Positions 41,029-51,640 of a stretch of 64,000 bases of DNA are shown here, one piece after another (position 1 is the first letter of the stretch; every line of letters starts with the position of its first letter). Source of the DNA: Colwellia sp. (lineage in GTDB: Bacteria > Pseudomonadota > Gammaproteobacteria > Enterobacterales > Alteromonadaceae). A model generated the notes under the pieces. The model was not told the origin of the DNA. It was given only the letters and a program-made list of their open reading frames with translations, and ran no database searches. The stretch spans positions 620,001 to 684,000 of the forward strand of contig NZ_JABSPA010000002.1 in NCBI RefSeq assembly GCF_013214175.1. Direction: 5' to 3'. A program made the translations under genes and the position numbers.

Positions 41029-41044
41029 TAATGACTCCAAGGTG

Positions 41045-41322
41045 ATACCAAGTCGACTAAGTTTTTTCCCGCTCAGCGAGAATTAAAAAGGTTTAGAGGC
41101 AAGACATTGATTGCAGAGAATGGTTATTCCCTTGTCAAAATCAATAACGCAGCATATGAACCTTTACCTATATATTAGGTACTCGCCCTTTGGGAGTTTA
41201 TTAGCAAACTGATAACTGCCCAAAATTAATGAAATATAGAATGACTATGTTTAATCAATTTTTCTTGTTTTAAGCTCGCTAATATAGCTCTGAGTTGGGA
41301 GCAAACTGAATCGAATTGGTAT
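41045..41322. repeat. Dispersed structured repeat, copy A, with terminal inverted repeats
   Basis: This 278-bp element is homologous throughout to 50471-50735. The left end ATACCAAGTCGACTAAGTTT (41045) matches the reverse complement of the right end, ATACCAATTCGATTCAGTTT (41303-41322), giving imperfect terminal inverted repeats of about 26 bp. Inside, ATTGATT (41106) and AATCAAT (41139) can pair, and a GAATGGTTATTC hairpin sits between them. It encodes no protein. It lies between divergent yrbG and mlaF, immediately upstream of the yrbG ribosome binding site. The size, ends and lack of coding resemble a MITE or REP-like element. Confidence 0.85.
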
Positions 41323-41588
41323 TATGAGCAAATTGTCGCTGGTTGTTGAGCAAAAAAGAAGTAAATAATGTCAACAACAGGCAAATAGTATTAATTTGTC
41401 TTAGTTTTAAGCGAAAACGATCACTTTCTTACAATTTAGCTTAGAGTTTTTACACTTATTGCCTCGTTATTGGTTTATTTCTAATGAAGAATTGTTATGG
41501 CTCAGGTAAAATCACGGGCTACTAAAGAAATTATATTGCGGACTTAGTCTAATGGTCTGCGGCAATAAATTAACAGTGACGTTGAACA
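41323..41588 (+). other. AT-rich leader/promoter region of the mla operon
   Basis: This 266-base stretch follows repeat copy A and precedes mlaF. It contains no open frame of interest. An imperfect inverted repeat, TTGCGGAC and GTCTGCGGCAA around 41537-41565, could form a hairpin in the mlaF leader. The mlaF ATG has only a weak GTGA-type ribosome binding site. I could not assign a convincing -35/-10 pair. Confidence 0.4.
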
Positions 41589-42404
41589 ATGACAAAGCCT
41601 GCATCTGAAGAAAATTTGGTTGAAATTGAAAACCTAACCTTTAAACGGGGTGAGCGAGTTATCTTTGACGATCTCAGCTTGTCTATTCCGAAAGGAAAAG
41701 TGACCGCAATCATGGGACCCAGTGGTATAGGCAAAACAACCTTGCTGCGTTTAATTGGCGGTCAAATAAAACCAGAAAGTGGTAAAATACTCTTTGCTGG
41801 CAAAAACATACCTTTGCTATCACGTAGCGAGTTATATGAAGCACGTAAACATATGAGTATGCTTTTTCAAAGTGGCGCCTTATTTACCGATATGAATGTT
41901 TTTGACAATATAGCCTTCCCCATTCGAGAACACACCAAATTATCTGAAGCCATCATTGAAAAAATAGTATTAATGAAGCTAGAAGCCGTTGGTTTACGTG
42001 GTGCAAGGCATTTACAGCCTAGTGAACTTTCTGGCGGTATGGCTCGTCGAGTAGCATTAGCGCGTGCAATCGCTTTGGATCCCGAGCTGATTTTGTATGA
42101 TGAACCCTTTGCTGGCCAAGACCCTATTTCAATGGGGGTAATAGTGCGATTAATACGTTCATTAAGTGACGCGTTAGGATTAACTTCAGTGGTCGTTTCA
42201 CATGATGTCCCCGAAGTTATGAGTATCGCTGATTATATTTATATTGTAGCGGAAAAGAAAATCATTGGTCATGGTACCCCAGAGCAAATACGCCAAGATA
42301 CCTCGCCTTTGGTACAGCAGTTTGTGCAAGGTGAAGCTGATGGCCCAGTACCTTTTCATTATGAAGCGCCAGCTTATCGTGATGAACTTATGAAAATATC
42401 TTAA
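41589..42404 (+). CDS. mlaF: Phospholipid ABC transporter ATPase MlaF
   Basis: A 271-residue ABC ATPase: Walker A GPSGIGKTTLLRLIGG (about 42), signature LSGGMARRVALARAI (about 146) and Walker B LILYDEPFAGQDPIS. The LSGGMARR variant and FAGQDP form are typical of MlaF. With MlaE, MlaD and MlaB it forms the inner-membrane complex that moves phospholipid between the inner membrane and the periplasmic carrier MlaC. It is the first gene of mlaFEDCB, divergent from yrbG. Confidence 0.97.
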   Translation: MTKPASEENLVEIENLTFKRGERVIFDDLSLSIPKGKVTAIMGPSGIGKTTLLRLIGGQIKPESGKILFAGKNIPLLSRSELYEARKHMSMLFQSGALFTDMNVFDNIAFPIREHTKLSEAIIEKIVLMKLEAVGLRGARHLQPSELSGGMARRVALARAIALDPELILYDEPFAGQDPISMGVIVRLIRSLSDALGLTSVVVSHDVPEVMSIADYIYIVAEKKIIGHGTPEQIRQDTSPLVQQFVQGEADGPVPFHYEAPAYRDELMKIS

Positions 42405-42459
42405 GGGATAGTGAGTAAATGAACCTTATTCGAAATAGTAAAATTCGAGGCGTTAATTA

Positions 42460-43236
42460 GTGCAAAAGTTACATTATTTAGGTAAAAAAACCCTTAGCAT
42501 GATAAGTGGTTTAGGACGCGCAGTAATTTTGTTGGTATCAGCGTTAATGCATGTGCCTAATATACGTAAGGGTACACCTTTACTTATCCAGCAGCTTTAT
42601 AGTGTCGGTGTTTTGTCTTTATTGATAATTATCGTCTCGGGTACGTTTATAGGTATGGTGTTAGCTTTACAAGGCTATACTATTCTTGTCGGCTATGGCG
42701 CAGAAGCTAGCTTAGGTCCTATGGTTGCGCTGTCGTTATTACGAGAGCTTGGCCCTGTGGTTGCCGCGTTATTATTTGCTGGCCGAGCAGGCTCTGCTCT
42801 AACGGCTGAAATAGGTTTAATGAAAGCCACTGAGCAATTATCAAGCTTAGAGATGATGGCCATTGATCCATTAAGAAGAATTATTGCACCACGCTTTTGG
42901 GCCGGTTTTATTAGTTTACCTTTATTGGCCGCTATTTTCTCAATGGTGGGCATACTCGGTGCTTACGTCGTTGGTGTTGATTGGTTGGGTGTTGATGGCG
43001 GAACTTTTTGGTCAGTGATGCAAGATCAAGTCGATTTTGAAAAAGATATCCTCAACGGCGTAATCAAAAGTGTCGTATTTGCTTTTGTAGTGATGTGGAT
43101 AGCGGTATACAAAGGCTATGATTGTGAGCCTACCTCAGAGGGCATTAGTCGGGCAACTACCTCTACTGTGGTACAATCATCATTATGGGTTTTGTGTCTA
43201 GATTTTATTTTAACGGCGTTAATGTTCGTAAAATAA
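42460..43236 (+). CDS. mlaE: Phospholipid ABC transporter permease MlaE
   Basis: A 258-residue MlaE-family permease with five hydrophobic helices and the family motif [20 protein letters not shown] plus [20 protein letters not shown] (about 108-147). It starts with GTG at 42460, 9 bases after a GAGG ribosome binding site, the N-terminus [20 protein letters not shown] fitting the family. It lies 55 bases after mlaF. Confidence 0.96.
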
Positions 43237-43303
43237 TCACGGTAAGAGTTAATCAGTCAGATGTTTATATTGAATTTTTTATTACAAGGCGTTGGTGAAA
43301 GAC

Positions 43304-43777
43304 ATGGTGTCTAAGAAAGTAGAGTTATTGGTAGGTTTTTTTGTTGCATTAGGCATAGCTGCCTTATTAATGTTGTCGCTAAAAGTTGCAGATGCAGGTC
43401 TTGGCGGTGGTAGTGAAAGTTATCAGCTTTTTGCTAAGTTCGATAATATTGGCGGTTTGAAAGTGCGCTCGCCTATTAAAATTGGTGGCGTTGTTGTCGG
43501 CCGTGTCAGCGATATATCGCTAGATGACGAAGATTATACACCTGTAGTCACTCTTGATATTTATATTCAATACAATAAGTTATCAGAGGCTACTTCTGTG
43601 GCAATATTAACTGCCGGTTTATTAGGTGAACAATATTTAGGTGTGCAACCAGGCTTTGTCGATGAGTCGGTTGATACTTTGCAACCAGGTGATTTTATTG
43701 AAGATACTAAGCCAGCCTTAGTATTAGAAGAGTTAATTGGACAGTTTTTATTTAGCCAAGGAAGTGGTGATGAATAA
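43304..43777 (+). CDS. mlaD: Phospholipid transporter MCE protein MlaD
   Basis: A 157-residue protein with one N-terminal membrane helix (about 9-29) and an MCE domain with YQLFAKFDNIGGLKVRSPIK and IGGVVVGRVSDISLD. The LLGEQYLGV segment and C-terminal ALVLEELIGQFLF match the helix that forms the hexameric MlaD pore. ATG 43304 (MVSKKVELLVGFF) aligns with the family N-terminus; an in-frame GTG at 43295 with AAGG is an alternative. It overlaps mlaC by 8 bases. Confidence 0.95.
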   Translation: MVSKKVELLVGFFVALGIAALLMLSLKVADAGLGGGSESYQLFAKFDNIGGLKVRSPIKIGGVVVGRVSDISLDDEDYTPVVTLDIYIQYNKLSEATSVAILTAGLLGEQYLGVQPGFVDESVDTLQPGDFIEDTKPALVLEELIGQFLFSQGSGDE

Positions 43778-44558
43778 GTTAGAGAATATAAGTAAGCTAT
43801 ATATAGGTAAGTGCAACAGTAATATTTTTGTTGGCTTAGTTTTAGGCCTGCTACTGAATAATACAGCTATGGCTAATACAGAAGCCGCAGCAACTAAGTT
43901 ACCTGTAGAGGCTACTAATCTCCCTTCACAGCCAACTAGACTTCTTGTTGACCAAAGTAATCCTTATAAAATGGTACGAGGTGCTGCCGAACAGACCTTT
44001 AAGCGCTTTGCTGCAGAGCAACAAGCTATCCAAGCAAACCCCAATTTGCTAAAGGATATAGTTCGTGAAGAGCTTATGCCTTATATCAATCATAAATATT
44101 CTGCCTTTAAAGTTATTGGTAAGCATTTAAAGAAAACAACCGACGCTGAACGTCGCGCATTTGTACCTGTTTTTCGTGAATACTTAGTGAGCTCTTATGC
44201 ACAAGTCTTTACTTTATATGATAATCAAGCGGTGGAGTTTTCCCCTGAAAAGTCTTATGAGGGTAAAAGAATTGTTGCGGTGAATACTCGCATTATCATG
44301 CCAGGTAGAGCTAATATTAATGTTGCTTTCAAAGTAAGACTTAATAAAAAGACTAAAGAGTGGCAAGCGTTTGATATGGTAGCAGAAGGCATAAGTTTAC
44401 TTGACTCAAAGCAAGCCGAGTTAGGTAGTATCATTAGGCAAAAGGGCCTACCTTATGTGACTGAATTATTAAAAAGAAAAAGCACTCGAGACATTGTCTT
44501 TAAAAGTCGTGCAGCCAAAGACAGTGGCACAACTGCAAAAAAAGCACAGCAAGGGTAA
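43770..44558 (+). CDS. mlaC: Periplasmic phospholipid-binding protein MlaC
   Basis: A 262-residue exported protein. The signal peptide spans about 1-35 (hydrophobic core NIFVGLVLGLLLNNTAMA). The Tol-Tol-Ttg2 (MlaC) domain follows, with FKVIGKHLKKTTDAERRAFV and WQAFDMVAEGISLLDSK. MlaC shuttles phospholipid between the outer-membrane MlaA complex and MlaFEDB. ATG 43770 follows AAGGA with 8-base spacing. The C-terminal tail after about 235 is Lys/Ala/Thr-rich. Confidence 0.94.
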   Translation: MNKLENISKLYIGKCNSNIFVGLVLGLLLNNTAMANTEAAATKLPVEATNLPSQPTRLLVDQSNPYKMVRGAAEQTFKRFAAEQQAIQANPNLLKDIVREELMPYINHKYSAFKVIGKHLKKTTDAERRAFVPVFREYLVSSYAQVFTLYDNQAVEFSPEKSYEGKRIVAVNTRIIMPGRANINVAFKVRLNKKTKEWQAFDMVAEGISLLDSKQAELGSIIRQKGLPYVTELLKRKSTRDIVFKSRAAKDSGTTAKKAQQG

Positions 44559-44561
44559 ATC

Positions 44562-44864
44562 GTGAGTAAAGCGAATATAGTTCTAAATCATGGTACTCTT
44601 ACTATTGCGGGTGAATTAACCCGTCATAGTGTCGCCGAAATTAAAAAAAATGCCTATGTTAACTGGTTTGCCCATGGTGCGGTGAACGTTGACCTAAGCC
44701 AAGTCAACAAGGCCGATACGGCTGGACTTGCTTGGTTATTTTACCTTTTGGAGCAGGCATCTCATCATAGCTGCCAATTAAGCTTTAGTAATGTTCCTGA
44801 GAAATTAACTAAACTAATTAGTTTAAGTGGCGTGGACGGTTTATTGCCCTTAGCATCTGATTAG
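44562..44864 (+). CDS. mlaB: STAS-domain protein MlaB
   Basis: A 100-residue STAS protein with GTG start (44562), AAGGG 8 bases upstream, and the family segment VDLSQVNKADTAGLAWLFYL (about 44-63). In E. coli MlaB binds MlaF and is needed for transporter stability and activity. It lies 3 bases after mlaC, consistent with the mlaFEDCB operon. Confidence 0.93.
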   Translation: MSKANIVLNHGTLTIAGELTRHSVAEIKKNAYVNWFAHGAVNVDLSQVNKADTAGLAWLFYLLEQASHHSCQLSFSNVPEKLTKLISLSGVDGLLPLASD

Positions 44865-44896
44865 TAACCATAAAATAACGTACATAGGAGACTCCC

Positions 44897-45157
44897 TTGG
44901 AAGTTAAAGAAATTGAAGACTTAGTAAGTAAACTGATTAATGAAGCACTAGAACTTGATGAAGTGCATGTGAAATTTGATGGCTCACAATGCCGTATTAA
45001 TGCAGTGAGTGATATGTTTGATGACTTAAGCCGCGTTAAGCGTCAACAAGCTGTGCTTAAGCCGTTAGCTGATATTATAAAAGACGGCACAATTCACGCG
45101 GTAACCGTGAAAACCTTTAATAAGGCGCAATGGCAGCGTGATAAATTATTTAATTAA
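44897..45157 (+). CDS. ibaG: BolA-family protein IbaG
   Basis: An 86-residue BolA/IbaG protein starting with TTG at 44897, 6 bases after AGGAG. It has the class II KH-like fold signature with the RQQAVLKPLADIIKDGTIHA helix and the C-terminal VKTFNKAQWQRDK. IbaG is an acid-responsive protein that forms Fe-S complexes with monothiol glutaredoxin. Between mlaB and murA is its standard position. A terminator follows. Confidence 0.93.
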   Translation: MEVKEIEDLVSKLINEALELDEVHVKFDGSQCRINAVSDMFDDLSRVKRQQAVLKPLADIIKDGTIHAVTVKTFNKAQWQRDKLFN

Positions 45158-45186
45158 TGGTTAAGTTGTTACTTAATTGTATTTTT

Positions 45187-45217
45187 AATGCCTAGCTTTT
45201 TAATGCTGGGCATTTTT
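45187..45217 (+). terminator. Terminator between ibaG and murA
   Basis: AATGCCTAGC and GCTGGGCATT form a 10-bp stem with one mismatch, followed by a T run. It would separate mla-ibaG from murA, which therefore probably has its own promoter in the 50 bases before its start (TATACT at 45221 is a possible -10). Confidence 0.75.
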
Positions 45218-45256
45218 GTGTATACTGGCTGAATATTGTTTCATCATTTTAAGTAA

Positions 45257-46531
<1,275 letters not shown>

Positions 46532-46586
46532 TTATCCACTAGGGTTTGAATTAATATCGCTAGCGGCAGTATTAATTCAAAACTAT

Positions 46587-46621
46587 AAAGGCTAGTACTT
46601 GCAAAAGTTCTGGCCTTTTTT
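46587..46621 (+). terminator. Terminator after murA
   Basis: AAAGGCTAGTACTT, loop GCAA and AAGTTCTGGCCTTT form a stem with one mismatch and one bulge, followed by T residues, 56 bases after murA. Confidence 0.85.
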
Positions 46622-46837
46622 GTGTCTGCAGAAAGTGAATAAAATAAAAGTTGCAGCGATAGTTATGGAGGTGAAATTTTTGCATGGTAACAAAGGGCTT
46701 AAATATTTTTCCTAGTAGTTAGGCTATATAAAGAGGCGCGGTCAGATACTGAAGATGATTAAAGCTTAAGTTAATTAGTTGTATTGAAGGGATCTGTTTG
46801 AGAGCTAAATTTTCCAAGGCATAAATTTAAGGCAATA
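46622..46837. other. Intergenic stretch between the murA and csp terminators
   Basis: Together with the flanking hairpins this completes the 386-base gap between convergent murA and the cold-shock gene. I see no open frame, repeat or clear promoter in it. It is AT-rich, non-coding spacer as far as I can tell. Confidence 0.5.
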
Positions 46838-46870
46838 AAAAAGGACATCCTTTACAGGAATGTCCTTTTT
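46838..46870 (-). terminator. Terminator of the cold-shock gene
   Basis: AAAAAGGACAT (46838-46848) and ATGTCCTTTTT (46860-46870) form a perfect 11-bp stem with an 11-base loop. Read on the minus strand it ends in a T run, 48 bases after the csp stop; it can act in both directions. Confidence 0.9.
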
Positions 46871-46917
46871 CAAACATCTAATGTTAGTTAGCTAATAGCT
46901 AACTTAACAATTGCTAA

Positions 46918-47124
46918 TTAAAGAGCTACGATGTTTTCAGCTTGAGGGCCTTTTTGACCTTCAGTAACTGTGAATTCAACTTTTTGACCTTCAGCAAGAG
47001 TTTTGAAACCGTCACCAACGATAGCGTTGAAGTGAGCAAAAACGTCTGGACCGTTTTCTTGCTCGATAAAACCAAAACCTTTAGCTTCGTTAAACCATTT
47101 TACTGTACCAGTAGTAGTAGACAT
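46918..47124 (-). CDS. Cold-shock protein (CspA family)
   Basis: A 68-residue single CSD protein with both RNA-binding motifs, KGFGFIEQ (RNP1) and DVFAHF (RNP2), and N-terminus [20 protein letters not shown]. CspA-type proteins are RNA chaperones. The ribosome binding site AGGATA precedes the ATG. It is preceded by a consensus sigma-70 promoter and a leader of about 180 bases, the arrangement of cold-inducible csp genes whose leader senses temperature. It may nevertheless be constitutive; the family does not decide this. Confidence 0.96.
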
Positions 47125-47304
47125 AATGTATCCTATATATATTTAAGAGTAATTGTGCTGCCAATTGCTTATGCAAATAGCTAGCGGGTTTGCTAAAAAG
47201 AGTTGCTATTACTTATAAATCAGGACGTGTTACAGATATCTTATCTAAGGTAAGCATGAGATAACATCGAAATGGTGTACAAAAAAATAAACTAACTTCA
47301 AGCT
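47125..47304 (-). promoter_or_regulatory. Long csp 5' leader, candidate cold-responsive UTR
   Basis: Between the predicted transcription start (about 47304) and the csp ATG are about 180 untranslated bases. Long structured leaders of cspA-type mRNAs refold at low temperature to expose the ribosome binding site. Here the evidence is length and position; I did not compute a fold. Confidence 0.5.
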
Positions 47305-47310
47305 GGGGGC

Positions 47311-47338
47311 ATTATATAGTTAGCGCGCCATATGTCAA
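47311..47338 (-). promoter_or_regulatory. Consensus sigma-70 promoter of the cold-shock gene
   Basis: On the minus strand, TTGACA (47338-47333) and TATAAT (47316-47311) are both perfect hexamers with a 16-base spacer. This is the strongest housekeeping promoter I see in the window. Confidence 0.85.
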
Positions 47339-47353
47339 CCATAAGTGCGCTTT

Positions 47354-47390
47354 AAGCTGCAAGTAAACTAGAATATTATACTTACAGCTT
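47354..47390 (-). terminator. Hairpin between the chemoreceptor gene and csp promoter
   Basis: AAGCTGTAAGTA and TACTTGCAGCTT (minus-strand reading) form a 12-bp stem with one mismatch, 10 bases after the chemoreceptor stop. There is no T run, so termination is inferred from position. Confidence 0.5.
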
Positions 47391-47400
47391 ATGTTTATCC

Positions 47401-49419
47401 TTATAATTTAAACTCTTGCACCGATTGCTGTAGTTCTTCTGCTAAACGAGCAACCTCACTGCTTGATGCTGCAGTTTGTTGCGAACCAGCAGTGGTTTGC
47501 TCAGCAATAGTCACAATAGACTCAAGGTTTTCACTAATTTCATGGGCGACAACACTTTGTTCTTCGGCTGCCGTAGCAATTTGTGTACTGCGATCAAATG
47601 CCTCATGCACTGCATGGGTAATGACTTCCAGTGCTTGATCTGCTTCTTCACTTTGGCTGACACAATCACTGGCTTTAGCTTTACCGGCATCCATTACCGT
47701 TACCGCTTTACCTGCGCCGGTTTGCAGCGCCTCTATCATGGTTTGAATTTCTGAAGTCGACTCTTGAGTTCTGCTTGCTAAGGTTCGTACTTCATCAGCA
47801 ACTACGGCAAAGCCTCGACCTTGTTCACCCGCTCGAGCTGCCTCAATGGCCGCATTCAAAGCTAGTAAGTTTGTTTGTTCAGCAATTCCACGAATTACAT
47901 CTAAAATGCCACCAATTGAAGCACTGTCTTGCTGTAATTGATTGATAACCTGAGATGCTGAGTCAACCTCACTGGCTAATAATTCTATCGTCTGGCGGTT
48001 TCTCGCTGAAATAACTTTAACACGCTCAGCTTCGTCATCGGCATGCTTTATTTCGCTCAATGCATCATTAGCACTTGCCAGTACGCTTTGAGCAGTACTG
48101 CTCATTTCTGTAGTGGCAGAAGCGGCTTGTTCTACTTGATTGCGTTGCTCTTCAATGGCAGTGGTACTTTGCGCGGTAACTGCAGATGTTTGCTCTGCGG
48201 CGGCAGCAAGTTGAGCGGAGCGATTAACAATACTCTCTATCAGGTTACGTAAGCTATCTATTAATAAATTGCAGTTTCTTGATAGCTGAGCAAACTCATC
48301 ATTACCACTTTCATCAAGTTTCATTGAAAGGTCACCAGAGGCAACAATATTAAGCATTTCATTAACGCGAGCTAGTGGGCGAGTAATGCCGATAAGCGTT
48401 GCTCTAGCAATAAATAGGGCGACAACAATTGAGATAAGCATGATAACTGTTGTTTGGGTATTACCACTACTTACAGCGTCTTCTATCAACTGACTTGCTT
48501 TGATGGTGGTTTGATTAGCTAACTCAATTTGTTTTTCTAAAGCGCTATTAACTTGTTTAGCCGATAGCTCTTCTTGCTTGAGCATACGAGCTGCTTTTTT
48601 ATTAGCGGCAAGTTGCGCTGTTTTATGAGCAAGAATGCCATCTTCTTGAGATAAAAGTGCTTGAATTTCCTTAAAGGCTAGGCTGACTTGCTGTGAAATG
48701 TCGCCGATATTATGGGTATCTAATTCAGAGATGATATCGTCTACAGACTTGTTTGCTTCACTTAGGCTGCGTGAAAGCTCACTCTCGATGAGTTTGGCGG
48801 TACTTGCATCGAGGATATCTCGGTATTCAAATGAGGAAGATACTATGGAGTTAAATTGGTTTTCTAAATGTTCGCTTAAACTGATTGCACGTTGTAGTTT
48901 AGTGTCAGCAAGCTCATGATCAGCTAGATCTAAAAGTAACATCACTGTGTCATCAGCTTGCTCTTCTAAAGTATCTATTTTTTCTATTAATTGTTGCTGT
49001 TGTTCGATACTTATTTTATGGCTACTAAATAAACCAAGGCCAGCACTGTGAAAATTAGCGGAAAGTTTGTCTACCTGTCCCAAGTTTGCTAACAAATTTT
49101 GCTCGGTAGCAACAATTTGTTTTAGCTCTGATAATTCTTTTGAGAAAAGACTATTAATTTTCTTATAATCTCTCAGCTGTTGAGCTAACAGATTAAGATC
49201 TGTTTGATAGTAACCTTTTAAAGTTAAATTACTCATTTGGCTCAACTCAAGGGCAAGTTTATTACTGGCTTTAAGAGTTGGGATTGCCAAAGTATTTTGT
49301 TGCTGAGTGGCCTCACTTATAGTATCTAAGTTCGATAGCGATATGATACTAATTACTACCAGTAAAATTGAAATAATGGCAAAGCCACCAATAATTTTTA
49401 CAGCTACAGTTAAATTCAT
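47401..49419 (-). CDS. Methyl-accepting chemotaxis protein
   Basis: A 672-residue chemoreceptor. Membrane helix 1 (about 8-28) and helix 2 (about 325-345) flank a long helical periplasmic sensor with no family I can name. A HAMP domain follows (about 345-400, [20 protein letters not shown]), then the signalling domain with the hairpin tip [20 protein letters not shown] and [15 protein letters not shown] (about 515-550). The ligand is unknown. ATG 49419, after GGGTGGA, is chosen over an in-frame GTG at 49428. A sigma-28-type promoter lies about 75 bases upstream. Confidence 0.95.
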
Positions 49420-49493
49420 AGAATCCACCCAATTGGTAGGCTACTTGCCTAGTTAATACGTTAATTTGTTTTGATATTTATCAAGTTTAGCTT

Positions 49494-49520
49494 GTATCGG
49501 CGCGCAATAGGAAATATTTA
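49494..49520 (-). promoter_or_regulatory. Predicted sigma-28 (FliA) promoter of the chemoreceptor gene
   Basis: On the minus strand, TAAA (49520-49517), exactly 15 bases, then GCCGATAC (49501-49494) matches the FliA consensus TAAA-N15-GCCGATAA with one mismatch. The site is 75 bases before the chemoreceptor start codon, so the gene is probably a late flagellar-class gene. Confidence 0.75.
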
Positions 49521-49613
49521 ATTTTATTTCCAACTACTGTTAACATTATACTAAGTGAAAATATATCCGCTATGGATTCTTTGCTTTTATCTTATATAAA
49601 ATTCTTTATTATT

Positions 49614-50465
49614 CTATATGCTCAGTATTGCCGCTTGACTGAAGTATTTTTTATCATGCCAGCGAAGCATGGTCAATTGATTCCCCCAGACACACCCTGT
49701 ATCTAAGGGATAAATATTAGTGTGTGAACATTGGCCCATTAACGAAGCCCAATGACCAAAAACCCAAGCAGTATTATTGATAGTTTTAGATAACTCATAC
49801 CACGGCACTATGCTGGGAAAATTAATATCATCAGGAGATTCTTTTTGGTTAAACTCTAATGAGCCGTCACTAAAGCAGTAGCGCATGCGGGTAAAGGCAT
49901 TAATACTATAGCGAAACTTGTCAATTTCACTTTTTGCTTGCAGCCAACTATTAGGCTCTTCACCATACATAAGTGCTAACCAGGTATTACGTTCACTACT
50001 GGCAAGTTTAGAGTGGACAAACTGAGCTTGCTCTATGGCATCGGCTAGTTGCCATTGTGGGGATATGCCCGCATGGCTCATGTAGGCATCATTAGTTATG
50101 GCTTGTTGTTTAGCTTGAGAATATAGCTGAGGTATTTTTTGTAATAAGGGTTGCGCCGCTAGCCAGTCCATCAAGTCATCAATATCATCAGCAGCCAATA
50201 GTGCAGCTAACTGATCTGATTTTTTAGCTTTTTTAATACCAGCATGCACTGCTAATAAATGTAAATCGTGATTGCCTAAGACCACCTTGGCACTTTCACC
50301 AAGAGATTTTACTAAGCGTAAGGTTTTTAAAGAATCAGGGCCGCGAGCGACTAGGTCGCCCGCAAGGTAGAGGGTATCTTTCTTGTCATCAAAATTAACT
50401 TGCACTAACAGAGCCGTTAATTCGTTAAAACAACCTTGTATATCGCCTACCAGATAGATCGCCAT
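49614..50465 (-). CDS. apaH: Diadenosine tetraphosphatase ApaH
   Basis: A 283-residue symmetric Ap4A hydrolase with the metallophosphatase motifs GDIQGCFNEL (7-16), GDLVARGPDS (about 36-45) and GNHDLHLLAVHAG (about 64-76). It cleaves Ap4A to two ADP and also removes Np4 caps from RNA in E. coli. The start codon lies 5 bases from a repeat element, and no ribosome binding site is visible upstream, which is unusual. apaG, its usual upstream neighbour, is not present here. Confidence 0.96.
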   Translation of the reverse strand: MAIYLVGDIQGCFNELTALLVQVNFDDKKDTLYLAGDLVARGPDSLKTLRLVKSLGESAKVVLGNHDLHLLAVHAGIKKAKKSDQLAALLAADDIDDLMDWLAAQPLLQKIPQLYSQAKQQAITNDAYMSHAGISPQWQLADAIEQAQFVHSKLASSERNTWLALMYGEEPNSWLQAKSEIDKFRYSINAFTRMRYCFSDGSLEFNQKESPDDINFPSIVPWYELSKTINNTAWVFGHWASLMGQCSHTNIYPLDTGCVWGNQLTMLRWHDKKYFSQAAILSI

Positions 50466-50470
50466 AAGCT

Positions 50471-50735
50471 ATACCATTTTGATTTAGTTTCTTTTCACTC
50501 AGCGAGAGTTAAAAGGTTTAGAGGCAAGGCATTGATTGAAGAGAATGGTTATTCCCTTATCAAAATCAATAACGTAGGATGTAAGCCTTTTAAACTCGCC
50601 CTTCGGGAGTTTGTCAGCGACTCGATAACCGCACTGAATTCCTTTCATATAGAAATAACTATAATGTAAAAAATTCAATTTGTTCTCAAACCGCTGATAA
50701 GCTATGAGTGGGAACAAACTGAGTCAAATTGGTAT
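50471..50735. repeat. Dispersed structured repeat, copy B, with terminal inverted repeats
   Basis: This 265-bp element is the second copy of the element at 41045-41322. The ends ATACCATTTTGATTTAGTTT (50471) and, on the other strand, ATACCAATTTGACTCAGTTT (from 50735) are imperfect terminal inverted repeats. Three nested inverted pairs are visible: GAGTTAAAAGG (50506) with CCTTTTAAACTC (50586); ATTGATT (50531) with AATCAAT (50564); and hairpin AAACTCGCCC/GGGAGTTT (50592-50612). It encodes no protein. It fills the whole gap between ksgA and apaH, where apaG is expected, and its last base is the last base of the ksgA stop codon. Confidence 0.87.
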
Positions 50736-51640
50736 TACTCTGCTTCTGGCGCAGAGTCCTTATTTAAATCGTTTTTAGCACGTTGAGCTAGTCTGCTTTT
50801 TGACATATGTCTTTTTTCTTTTACTGGCTCAACCTCTGGTGGGTTATCAAAAATAAAGTTGGCAAGCTTAATATATTCATCAATGCTTAGGTTTTCTGGG
50901 CGTAAATTTGCATCAATATTTAATTCAGCTAGCTGCGCTACGCTAACTAGTTTCTTAAAACTATTTCGTATAGTTTTCCTGCGCTGACCAAAGGCGGCTA
51001 AACAAATAGTATTTAAGGCCTTGATATCTTTAACAGGGTTAGCAATATGTTCGTGCGGGATCAACCGAACAATGGCAGAATCAACTTTCGGTGCGGGTTT
51101 AAATGCTTCTGGACCAATTTCCATCACAGGGAATACTTGGCACTGGTATTGAGTCATTATTGATAAACGACCATAGGCTTTACAATGAGGACCTGCGGCC
51201 ATACGCTCGACCACTTCTTTTTGCAGCATAAAGTGCATATCTTTCACTTTATCTTTGAAAGTAAGTAGGTGAAAAATTAGTGGCGTGGAAATGTTATAAG
51301 GTAAGTTACCAAAAATTCGTAATGGTTTTTCTTCGCTAGCTAACTGAGCAAAATCAAATTTCAAGGCATCTGTTTCATAGATGGTTAAGTCATCGGCTAT
51401 AAAAGGATGGTGACGCAGTCTATGAGCTAGATCTCTATCTAATTCTACTACCGATATTTTACCTGCTCGTTCAATCACTGGCTCAGTTAATGCGCCTAAA
51501 CCCGGGCCTATTTCTACAAGGTTTTCACCGGGCTCTGGATTAATAGCATCGACAATATCACTGATAACAGCTTCATTATGGAGGAAGTTTTGTCCAAAGC
51601 GTTTTTTGGCTTGGTGACCTAAATGTTTTTTATCGTTCAT
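50735..51640 (-). CDS. rsmA: 16S rRNA dimethyladenosine transferase KsgA/RsmA
   Basis: A 301-residue Rossmann methyltransferase with the SAM-binding [14 protein letters not shown] (about 42-55) and catalytic [11 protein letters not shown] (about 111-121). It dimethylates A1518 and A1519 of 16S rRNA, a late 30S assembly checkpoint. It is about 28 residues longer than the E. coli enzyme: after DNPPEVEP a basic/acidic tail ([20 protein letters not shown]) extends to a stop codon that coincides with the boundary of the downstream repeat. It lies between pdxA and apaH, the usual order apart from missing apaG. Confidence 0.97.

What the first reader, a model, noticed from the sequence alone, without database searches (positions are those of the whole stretch)
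41045..50735. New-looking structured repeat family: two 265-278 bp non-coding elements with terminal inverted repeats
41045-41322 and 50471-50735 share a core (from CTCAGCGAGA to GGGAGTTT) and both ends. Each has imperfect terminal inverted repeats of about 26 bp, ending in ATACCA...TGGTAT, and a nested set of internal inverted repeats, some with compensating differences between copies (for example GAGTTAAAAGG/CCTTTTAAACTC in B and AAAGGTT/AACCTTT in A). Neither encodes a protein and no transposase is in the window. They look like a MITE or a REP-like structured element mobilised in trans. No target-site duplication is evident to me.
Basis: partly seen in the sequence, partly recalled or inferred. 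Interest (0 to 1): 0.72.

Follow-up and report, generated by a model that had tools for sequence, protein, structure and literature searches.

The report
Two-headed RNA cargo on miniature transposons
Two short non-coding sequences in this marine bacterium are copies of a small inserted element with relatives in all 39 genomes of its genus that were searched; each carries two mirror-image hairpin arms whose mutation patterns differ by strand, so each arm likely folds as RNA from its own strand and would work whichever way the element lands.

Summary
A (41046-41321) and B (50472-50734) belong to a multi-copy family, here called M262: at least 44 and 42 BLAST matches (pieces included) in the own genome, and matches in 39 of 39 genomes of the genus. 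The copies are insertions. No transposase with matching ends was found among the loci that could be read.

The new result concerns the inside of the element. It folds as a three-way junction with strong covariation. In 143 copies, wobble-type changes are strand-asymmetric in opposite senses in the two arms: arm 1 GU 82 / AC 27, arm 2 46 / 88, terminal stem 51 / 47; arm 1 against arm 2 Fisher p 1.6e-10. Profiles link the arms when read on opposite strands. So each arm appears constrained as single-stranded nucleic acid, most likely RNA, on its own strand.

The same arm also sits in a second element, K262, with unrelated ends and, at one site, a 2-bp duplication. The RNA's function, and transcription itself, are untested. 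Verdict: a MITE-type element that is a new variant of a known kind.

The parts
41046..41321 (+). Element A, full copy of the M262 family (276 bp), between yrbG (minus) and mlaF (plus)
   Evidence: filled/empty comparison
41043..41045 (.). Left target-site duplication of A (TGA; empty sites mostly read TTA here)
41322..41324 (.). Right target-site duplication of A (TTA)
41046..41075 (+). Left terminal inverted repeat of A
41291..41321 (-). Right terminal inverted repeat of A
41076..41186 (+). Arm 1 of A, including a 12-nt extra stretch (ACCTATATATTA, 41166-41177) seen in some copies
41194..41290 (-). Arm 2 of A; the arm 2 profile matches some K262 arm 1 copies when read on the minus strand
50472..50734 (+). 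Element B, full copy of the M262 family (263 bp), between apaH and ksgA (both minus)
50469..50471 (.). Left target-site duplication of B (CTA)
50735..50737 (.). Right target-site duplication of B (TTA); on the minus strand this is the TAA stop codon of ksgA
50472..50501 (+). Left terminal inverted repeat of B
50705..50734 (-). Right terminal inverted repeat of B
50502..50599 (+). Arm 1 of B; conserved loop pieces GGCAAGG at 50523-50529 and AACG at 50571-50574
50607..50704 (-). Arm 2 of B

Best explanation
These are two copies of a non-autonomous insertion element of about 263 bp, likely moved by a transposase supplied from elsewhere, that carries two inverted hairpin arms, likely copies of one arm, each of which is predicted to fold as RNA from its own strand. 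Shown here: multi-copy family, insertion at TNA with a 3-bp duplication, empty sites in relatives, covarying three-way-junction structure, opposite strand asymmetry of wobble changes in the two arms and none in the terminal stem, profile matches linking the arms on opposite strands, and the same arm inside a second element type (K262) with unrelated ends and, at one site, a 2-bp duplication. Inferred: the terminal repeats are kept alike because a DDE transposase reads them as DNA (TNA duplication, IS5/PIF-like by recall), whereas the arms are kept as RNA hairpins. Because the arms point opposite ways, a transcript in either direction would contain one arm in its proper sense. My commitment on function is that the arm likely acts in cis in the transcripts it lands in, as a processing or stability element that makes the insertion tolerable to neighbouring genes such as ksgA-apaH. 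That last step is a guess.
For: Copies. TSD: 24 of 54 identical 3-mers against a shuffle mean of 13.0, 0 of 2000; 49 of 88 against 24.4, 0 of 1000 (this set shares some copies with the first). Empty sites: ksgA-apaH 13 of 30 loci with 5-7 bp between the genes; A's site empty in 13 of 17 aligned loci, the 17 being those I chose to align of 29 measured. Position: 0 of 59 intact elements of three families inside a selected ORF of 110 aa or more, coding fraction 0.83-0.86. Structure. Wobble test: first 53 copies arm 1 GU 35 / AC 13, arm 2 18 / 32; 39 copies not in that set 23 / 7 and 13 / 24; 51 further copies 32 / 7 and 21 / 32; pooled 143 copies 82 / 27, 46 / 88, stem 51 / 47. Robust to taking the structure from the minus-strand fold, to shared pairs only, to pairs at least 85% Watson-Crick, and to bootstrap over pairs. 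Not a mutation bias: unpaired arm 1 sites show C>T 5.7 against G>A 7.3 per site. Separate family S157, arm 28 / 12, p 0.017. Arm links by strand.
Against: No transcript data. In the 33-copy K262 set the asymmetry was absent (21/18 and 20/22); with 51 copies it leans the predicted way without significance (34/20 p 0.076, 28/38 p 0.27). In S157 the terminal stem also leans to GU (39/23, p 0.056), and on internal branches so does the M262 stem (16/6, p 0.053). M262 arm 2 alone is not significant in any single set (p 0.065, 0.099, 0.17) and not on internal branches (9/14). Some copies of the later sets are orthologues of earlier ones, so the sets are not wholly independent. The link of M262 arm 2 to other arms is weak (5 of 51 K262 arm 1 and 1 of 51 K262 arm 2 copies). 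G-T is tolerated better than A-C in single-stranded DNA too (recalled), so RNA is favoured rather than proven. No orientation preference relative to co-directional neighbours (my count from the rows: M262 4 sense / 8 antisense, S157 6 / 9). No mobilising transposase was found. The closest pair of own-genome copies within a family in the 2.38 Mb held is 96.2% identical, so recent activity is not shown.
Confidence: 0.7

Rival explanations
1. An ordinary MITE: only the ends matter, and the inner palindromes are kept perfect by template-switch (quasi-palindrome) correction rather than by selection on RNA.
For: Type II MITEs share with autonomous elements only their TIRs (review section '2. Prokaryotic MITEs'); palindromes can be corrected by template switching (recalled); no function is shown for the arms.
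Against: Template switching restores Watson-Crick pairs and has no reason to favour G-U over A-C in opposite senses in the two arms. Several unpaired positions of arm 1 are nearly invariant: A53 1.00, A57 0.97, A58 0.99, A104 0.99, A105 1.00 of 92 copies, while others vary. The arm is shared with elements whose ends are unrelated.
Confidence: 0.17
2. A REPIN/BIME-like element: the arms are single-stranded DNA hairpins recognised by a Y1 (RAYT-type) transposase, two of them in inverted orientation.
For: Inverted pair of hairpins with conserved unpaired bases and strand-specific constraint, as in REP doublets (recalled).
Against: The own genome has no PF01797 match and 12 of 39 genomes have none, among them G003, G011, G020, G029, G035 and G038 with 19 or more matches to B. 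The 3-bp TSD and long TIRs are not Y1 features (recalled). Whether arms flank Y1 genes in the other 27 genomes was not seen: those loci could not be cut out.
Confidence: 0.06
3. The arms are kept as DNA because they carry an IHF-type protein-binding site, as reported for Correia elements (passage of PMC2229807).
For: The consensus WATCAANNNNTTR (recalled) lies in 83 of 92 M262 copies (the 0 of 92 printed was a letter-case error of my script) and 38 of 51 K262 copies, against 0.05 expected per 263 bp of contig C1.
Against: It is absent from all 42 S157 copies, and protein binding to double-stranded DNA cannot give a G-U/A-C asymmetry. It could coexist with the best explanation.
Confidence: 0.05
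4. The arm is a twister-sister-like self-cleaving ribozyme.
For: The conserved loop pieces GGCAAGG and CGC..CAU recall the catalytic loop of twister-sister RNA (recalled resemblance).
Against: No Rfam match at E up to 1 for B, and only one unrelated match (mir-722, E 6.7) in 20 stretches holding copies of the three families at E up to 10. The CA at the presumed cleavage site is not kept in the S157 and K262 consensus (my reading).
Confidence: 0.02

Closest known systems
Type II MITEs mobilised in trans by IS transposases (e.g. RUP with IS630-Spn1, Correia/NEMIS, ERIC)
   Same: Short, non-coding, AT-rich, TIRs, TSD, many copies, transcript predicted to be highly paired (passages of PMC2229807; PMC10969869 section '2. 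Prokaryotic MITEs').
   Different: RUP targets TA (passage) and ERIC duplicates TA (recalled); M262 makes a TNA duplication. M262 is a three-way junction with two arms constrained on opposite strands; the passage gives repeat units of about 100-200 bp and, CIR apart, no arms.
CIR repeats of Caulobacter
   Same: Repeat RNA predicted with two arms joined by a linker (passage of PMC2229807).
   Different: M262 adds a long terminal stem and a 3-bp TSD, and its arms look like inverted copies; strand-specific constraint is not mentioned for CIR in the passage I read.
BIME/REPIN (inverted REP pairs with RAYT)
   Same: Two inverted hairpin units per element (recalled).
   Different: M262 has TIRs and a TSD, and occurs in genomes without any Y1 transposase match.
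IS5-group / PIF-Harbinger transposons with TNA or TWA target duplication
   Same: The 3-bp TNA duplication (family attribution recalled).
   Different: No transposase here. Of the PF13359/PF13586 loci read in the genus, those with recognisable ends have GGGGCTGTTGATC-like or GGCGTGTTGACC ends, not TACCA; the rest showed no clear ends.

Membership tests
MITE (non-autonomous DNA transposon) | Terminal inverted repeats | tested here: met
   25 pairs over the outer 30 positions; 94.4% of that helix's cells paired in 53 copies
MITE (non-autonomous DNA transposon) | Target-site duplication | tested here: met
   3-bp TNA: 24/54, 49/88 (overlapping set), both above every shuffle; empty sites
MITE (non-autonomous DNA transposon) | Repeated, dispersed, intergenic, presence/absence polymorphism | tested here: met
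MITE (non-autonomous DNA transposon) | No coding capacity | tested here: met
   No ORF of 100 aa or more lies within A or B; one listed ORF overlaps the start of A
MITE (non-autonomous DNA transposon) | Autonomous partner with the same ends | tested here: inconclusive
   None seen in 3.5 Mb of held DNA. Loci read around transposases: 5 of 5 PF13359 matches, 6 of 13 PF13586 matches, and for PF01609 the own-genome ORF plus 5 loci of more than 150 matches; none has TACCA ends. Most transposase loci of the genus were not read, and Type II MITEs can be orphaned
REPIN / BIME | RAYT (Y1) transposase in the genome | tested here: not met
   PF01797 absent from the own genome and from 12 of 39 genomes, own included
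Known Rfam structured RNA, including twister-sister ribozyme | Match to the curated covariance model | tested here: not met
IS5-group / PIF-Harbinger-mobilised element | Movement by that transposase | not testable with these tools
   Only the TNA duplication points there

The most novel reading that the evidence does not exclude
A mobile, orientation-independent RNA device: one structured RNA arm, carried as an inverted pair and selected separately on each strand, has been taken up by at least two unrelated transposon chassis (TNA-duplicating M262, TA-duplicating K262, and perhaps the one-armed S157), so that the RNA rather than any transposase is the lasting unit of the family, and it may be a new class of processing or catalytic RNA.
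Probability: 0.4. Interest if true: 0.85.

Novelty: new variant of a known kind. Interest (0 to 1): 0.6.

Why it matters
Whether the structures drawn for bacterial MITE transcripts are selected or just by-products of inverted repeats is an open doubt. Here the same element provides its own control: the terminal stem shows no strand preference, while the two arms show opposite ones. If that holds, selfish elements carry RNA modules kept on both strands, and an arm can outlive a change of transposon ends. With matches in all 39 genomes of the genus, the element is a ready system for testing what such RNA does to operon transcripts in cold marine bacteria.

Tried and rejected
Conserved leader: rejected by empty sites. 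IS630-type TA duplication for M262: rejected because 3-mers, not 2-mers, match across the element and the empty sites read TTA or CTA. Autonomous partner: a TIR-pair scan to 6 kb in 2.38 Mb of the own genome lists one long pair with near-perfect TACC ends, which is two S157 copies around host genes; the other long pairs of that list were not examined for content and look like chance. A scan to 3.5 kb in 3.5 Mb of held DNA gave 11 pairs, 8 of them around an ORF of 150 aa or more, none a transposase by my reading of the first 80 residues. PF13359, PF13586 and PF01609 loci that could be read lack TACCA ends; the others were not read. Stop-codon targeting: 5 of 59 elements abut a gene's stop codon exactly; my rough expectation was 2 to 3, so no claim. 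Ribozyme: see rivals. Phages: no match; plasmids: 2 Pseudoalteromonas records. Host-gene origin of the arm: of 167 overlapping arm-profile hits in 2.38 Mb, those more than 60 bp from known elements reduce to one place (E 8e-4). K262 flanks: TA on both sides is so constant that the shuffle test says nothing (16 of 25 against 15.7).

Dropped rows: 8 of 81 places without two clear ends; 3 of 56 full copies left out of the 53-row alignment; 1 of 40 stretches; 47 of 98 copies for being 97% or more identical to an earlier copy, duplicate, or odd in length; 3 of 20 S157 stretches. The 51-copy set comes from loci found by an exact 36-letter pattern inside arm 1 plus loci of earlier calls.
Full report
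Check of the observation. They are not a pair but a family, which I call M262 after its usual length: of 92 aligned copies 85 are 261-265 bp. The own genome (5.01 Mb) gives 44 BLAST matches to A and 42 to B, pieces included, with 40 candidates scored each. All 39 genomes of the genus match; 29 give 19 or more matches (the search scored at most 19 candidates per genome), the other 10 give 1 to 18. In the order, 40 of 295 genomes and 17 of 99 genera match, with two candidates scored per genome, so this is a lower bound. An exact 36-letter pattern from arm 1 hits at least 113 stretches in named genomes; the 80 listed are mostly Colwellia, with Pseudoalteromonas, Thalassotalea, Psychromonas and Litorilituus among the rest. 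Rfam has no match in the window at gathering scores, nor around B at E up to 1.

Insertion. B lies between apaH and ksgA. Of 30 orthologous loci, 5 hold a full-length match there, 1 a 25-bp remnant, 13 have only 5-7 bp between the genes, and 11 have other or longer spacers. A lies between yrbG and mlaF. Among 17 loci that I aligned (of 29 measured) 3 hold A, 1 holds both ends with the middle deleted, and 13 are empty at that site. The flanks show a 3-bp duplication TNA: 24 of 54 exact against a shuffle mean of 13.0 (0 of 2000), 24 of 39 in later copies (no shuffle run), 49 of 88 against 24.4 in a set that overlaps the first (0 of 1000). The ksgA stop codon TAA is the right-hand duplication of B, so the insertion left both genes intact.

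Two more families. In 2.38 Mb of the own genome that could be read, profile searches find 36 hits to a 157-bp family (S157), 28 to M262 and 23 to K262 (some hits are pieces of one element). S157 shares the TACCA ends and the TNA duplication (15 of 19 pairs exact, my count). K262 has unrelated ends (TACCC...GGGTA); 17 of 20 fetched copies have TA on both sides (my count). In one filled/empty comparison (L113 against L115 and others) two bases are added beside the element, so the two target copies would read TA and TC: a 2-bp duplication, judged on one site with mismatches. None of 59 intact elements of the three families lies inside a selected ORF of 110 aa or more.

Structure. Across 53 copies a three-way junction of 91 pairs is 94.4% paired; covariation exceeds 500 of 500 shuffles and all slid versions. 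Arm 1 and arm 2 branch from a terminal stem formed by the TIRs.

Which strand? A G-C or A-U pair that mutates once by transition gives either G-U (still a pair in that strand's RNA) or A-C (not a pair); on the other strand these swap. The idea is in the spirit of RNAstrand (PMC1892782, seen only as listing and start of abstract). Parsimony events in the first 53 copies: arm 1 GU 35 / AC 13, arm 2 18 / 32, terminal stem 24 / 21. I then drew copies not used before, some of them orthologues of earlier ones: 39 gave 23/7, 13/24, 9/8; 51 others gave 32/7, 21/32, 27/18. Pooled 143: arm 1 82/27 (p 1.3e-7), arm 2 46/88 (p 3.6e-4), stem 51/47 (p 0.76); arm 1 against arm 2 p 1.6e-10; terminal branches alone 70/27 and 37/74; internal branches 12/0, 9/14 and stem 16/6. 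The result survives deriving the structure from the minus strand (88/42, 49/110), using only pairs found in both folds (69/23, 46/88), or pairs at least 85% Watson-Crick (71/26, 33/57); bootstrap over pairs gives GU fractions 0.64-0.85 and 0.21-0.46. Balancing for which side of the helix changes leaves z = 3.1, -3.2 and, for S157, 2.2. Unpaired sites of arm 1 have no such asymmetry, so a mutation bias is unlikely. P values treat events as independent and the tree as right, so they are indicative.

Arms look like inverted copies. Profiles of each arm find the others mainly on the strand that the wobble test picks: K262 arm 1 with M262 arm 1 (E 7e-25), K262 arm 2 read on minus with M262 arm 1 (87 of 92 copies, best 2.6e-8) and with K262 arm 1 (23 of 51, 1.3e-9), M262 arm 2 read on minus with K262 arm 1 (5 of 51, 3e-4). 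Because the arms are palindromic, profiles also match their own arm on the other strand, and between arms there were 2 and 1 other-strand hits (M262 arm 1 to K262 arm 1 and back). The S157 arm is only weakly linked (best 8.5e-4). So one arm type sits in elements with two kinds of ends.

Results against. K262 showed no asymmetry with 33 copies and only a lean with 51. S157's stem also leans to GU. Arm 2 of M262 reaches significance only when pooled. Elements show no orientation preference relative to co-directional genes (my count). No mobilising transposase was found in what could be read. G-T tolerance exists in single-stranded DNA too.

Interpretation. TIR identity with no strand preference fits recognition of both ends by one DNA-binding transposase; arm pairing with opposite strand preference fits RNA folding, one arm per strand. 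Function is inferred: a cis-acting RNA element in host transcripts is my best guess, by analogy with ERIC and NEMIS, where orientation-dependent RNase E effects and proposed RNase III effects are described (passages of PMC2229807).

Literature. Searches for Colwellia with MITE terms, palindromic repeats, MITEs with Shewanella or Pseudoalteromonas, transcribed bacterial MITEs, Alteromonadales MITEs, and TNA-type bacterial MITEs listed no paper that I recognised, from titles and abstract starts, as describing this family; the library holds open-licence papers only. Of PMC10969869 I read the outline and the section '2. Prokaryotic MITEs'; of PMC2229807, PMC11620745 and PMC6154101 passages; the last two only to weigh the ribozyme idea.

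Noticed in passing
L376, L396, L429; own contigs C12:297875, C1:582887, C14:89733: A nested module of about 50 nt (CAGGAG...CTCCTG hairpin plus, in most, a second hairpin like CTACATCCATGTAG) sits at the same terminal loop, after GGTTATTC or a variant, in arms of one M262 and several K262 elements (9 pattern matches).
   Followed up: partly
L368:2588-3819 (Candidatus Colwellia aromaticivorans): A 33-bp internally deleted element and a full M262 copy flank a complete gene with identical outer 20-bp ends; each has its own TTA on both sides, so two separate insertions are likelier than a composite transposon.
   Followed up: partly
G000:C12:753346-755151: Two inverted S157 copies flank two host genes (coaE- and zapD-like by my reading); outer 24-bp ends match at 23 of 24.
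   Followed up: no
G000:C1:545990-546512: Two K262 copies lie back to back, two bases apart.
   Followed up: no
window 50465-50735: apaG, which in E. coli lies between ksgA and apaH (recalled), is not between them here; in 13 of 30 relatives the two genes are only 5-7 bp apart.
   Followed up: no
arm 1 of M262 and K262 copies: An IHF-consensus motif, mostly AATCAATGCCTTG in M262, recurs (83 of 92 M262, 38 of 51 K262, 0 of 42 S157).
   Followed up: partly
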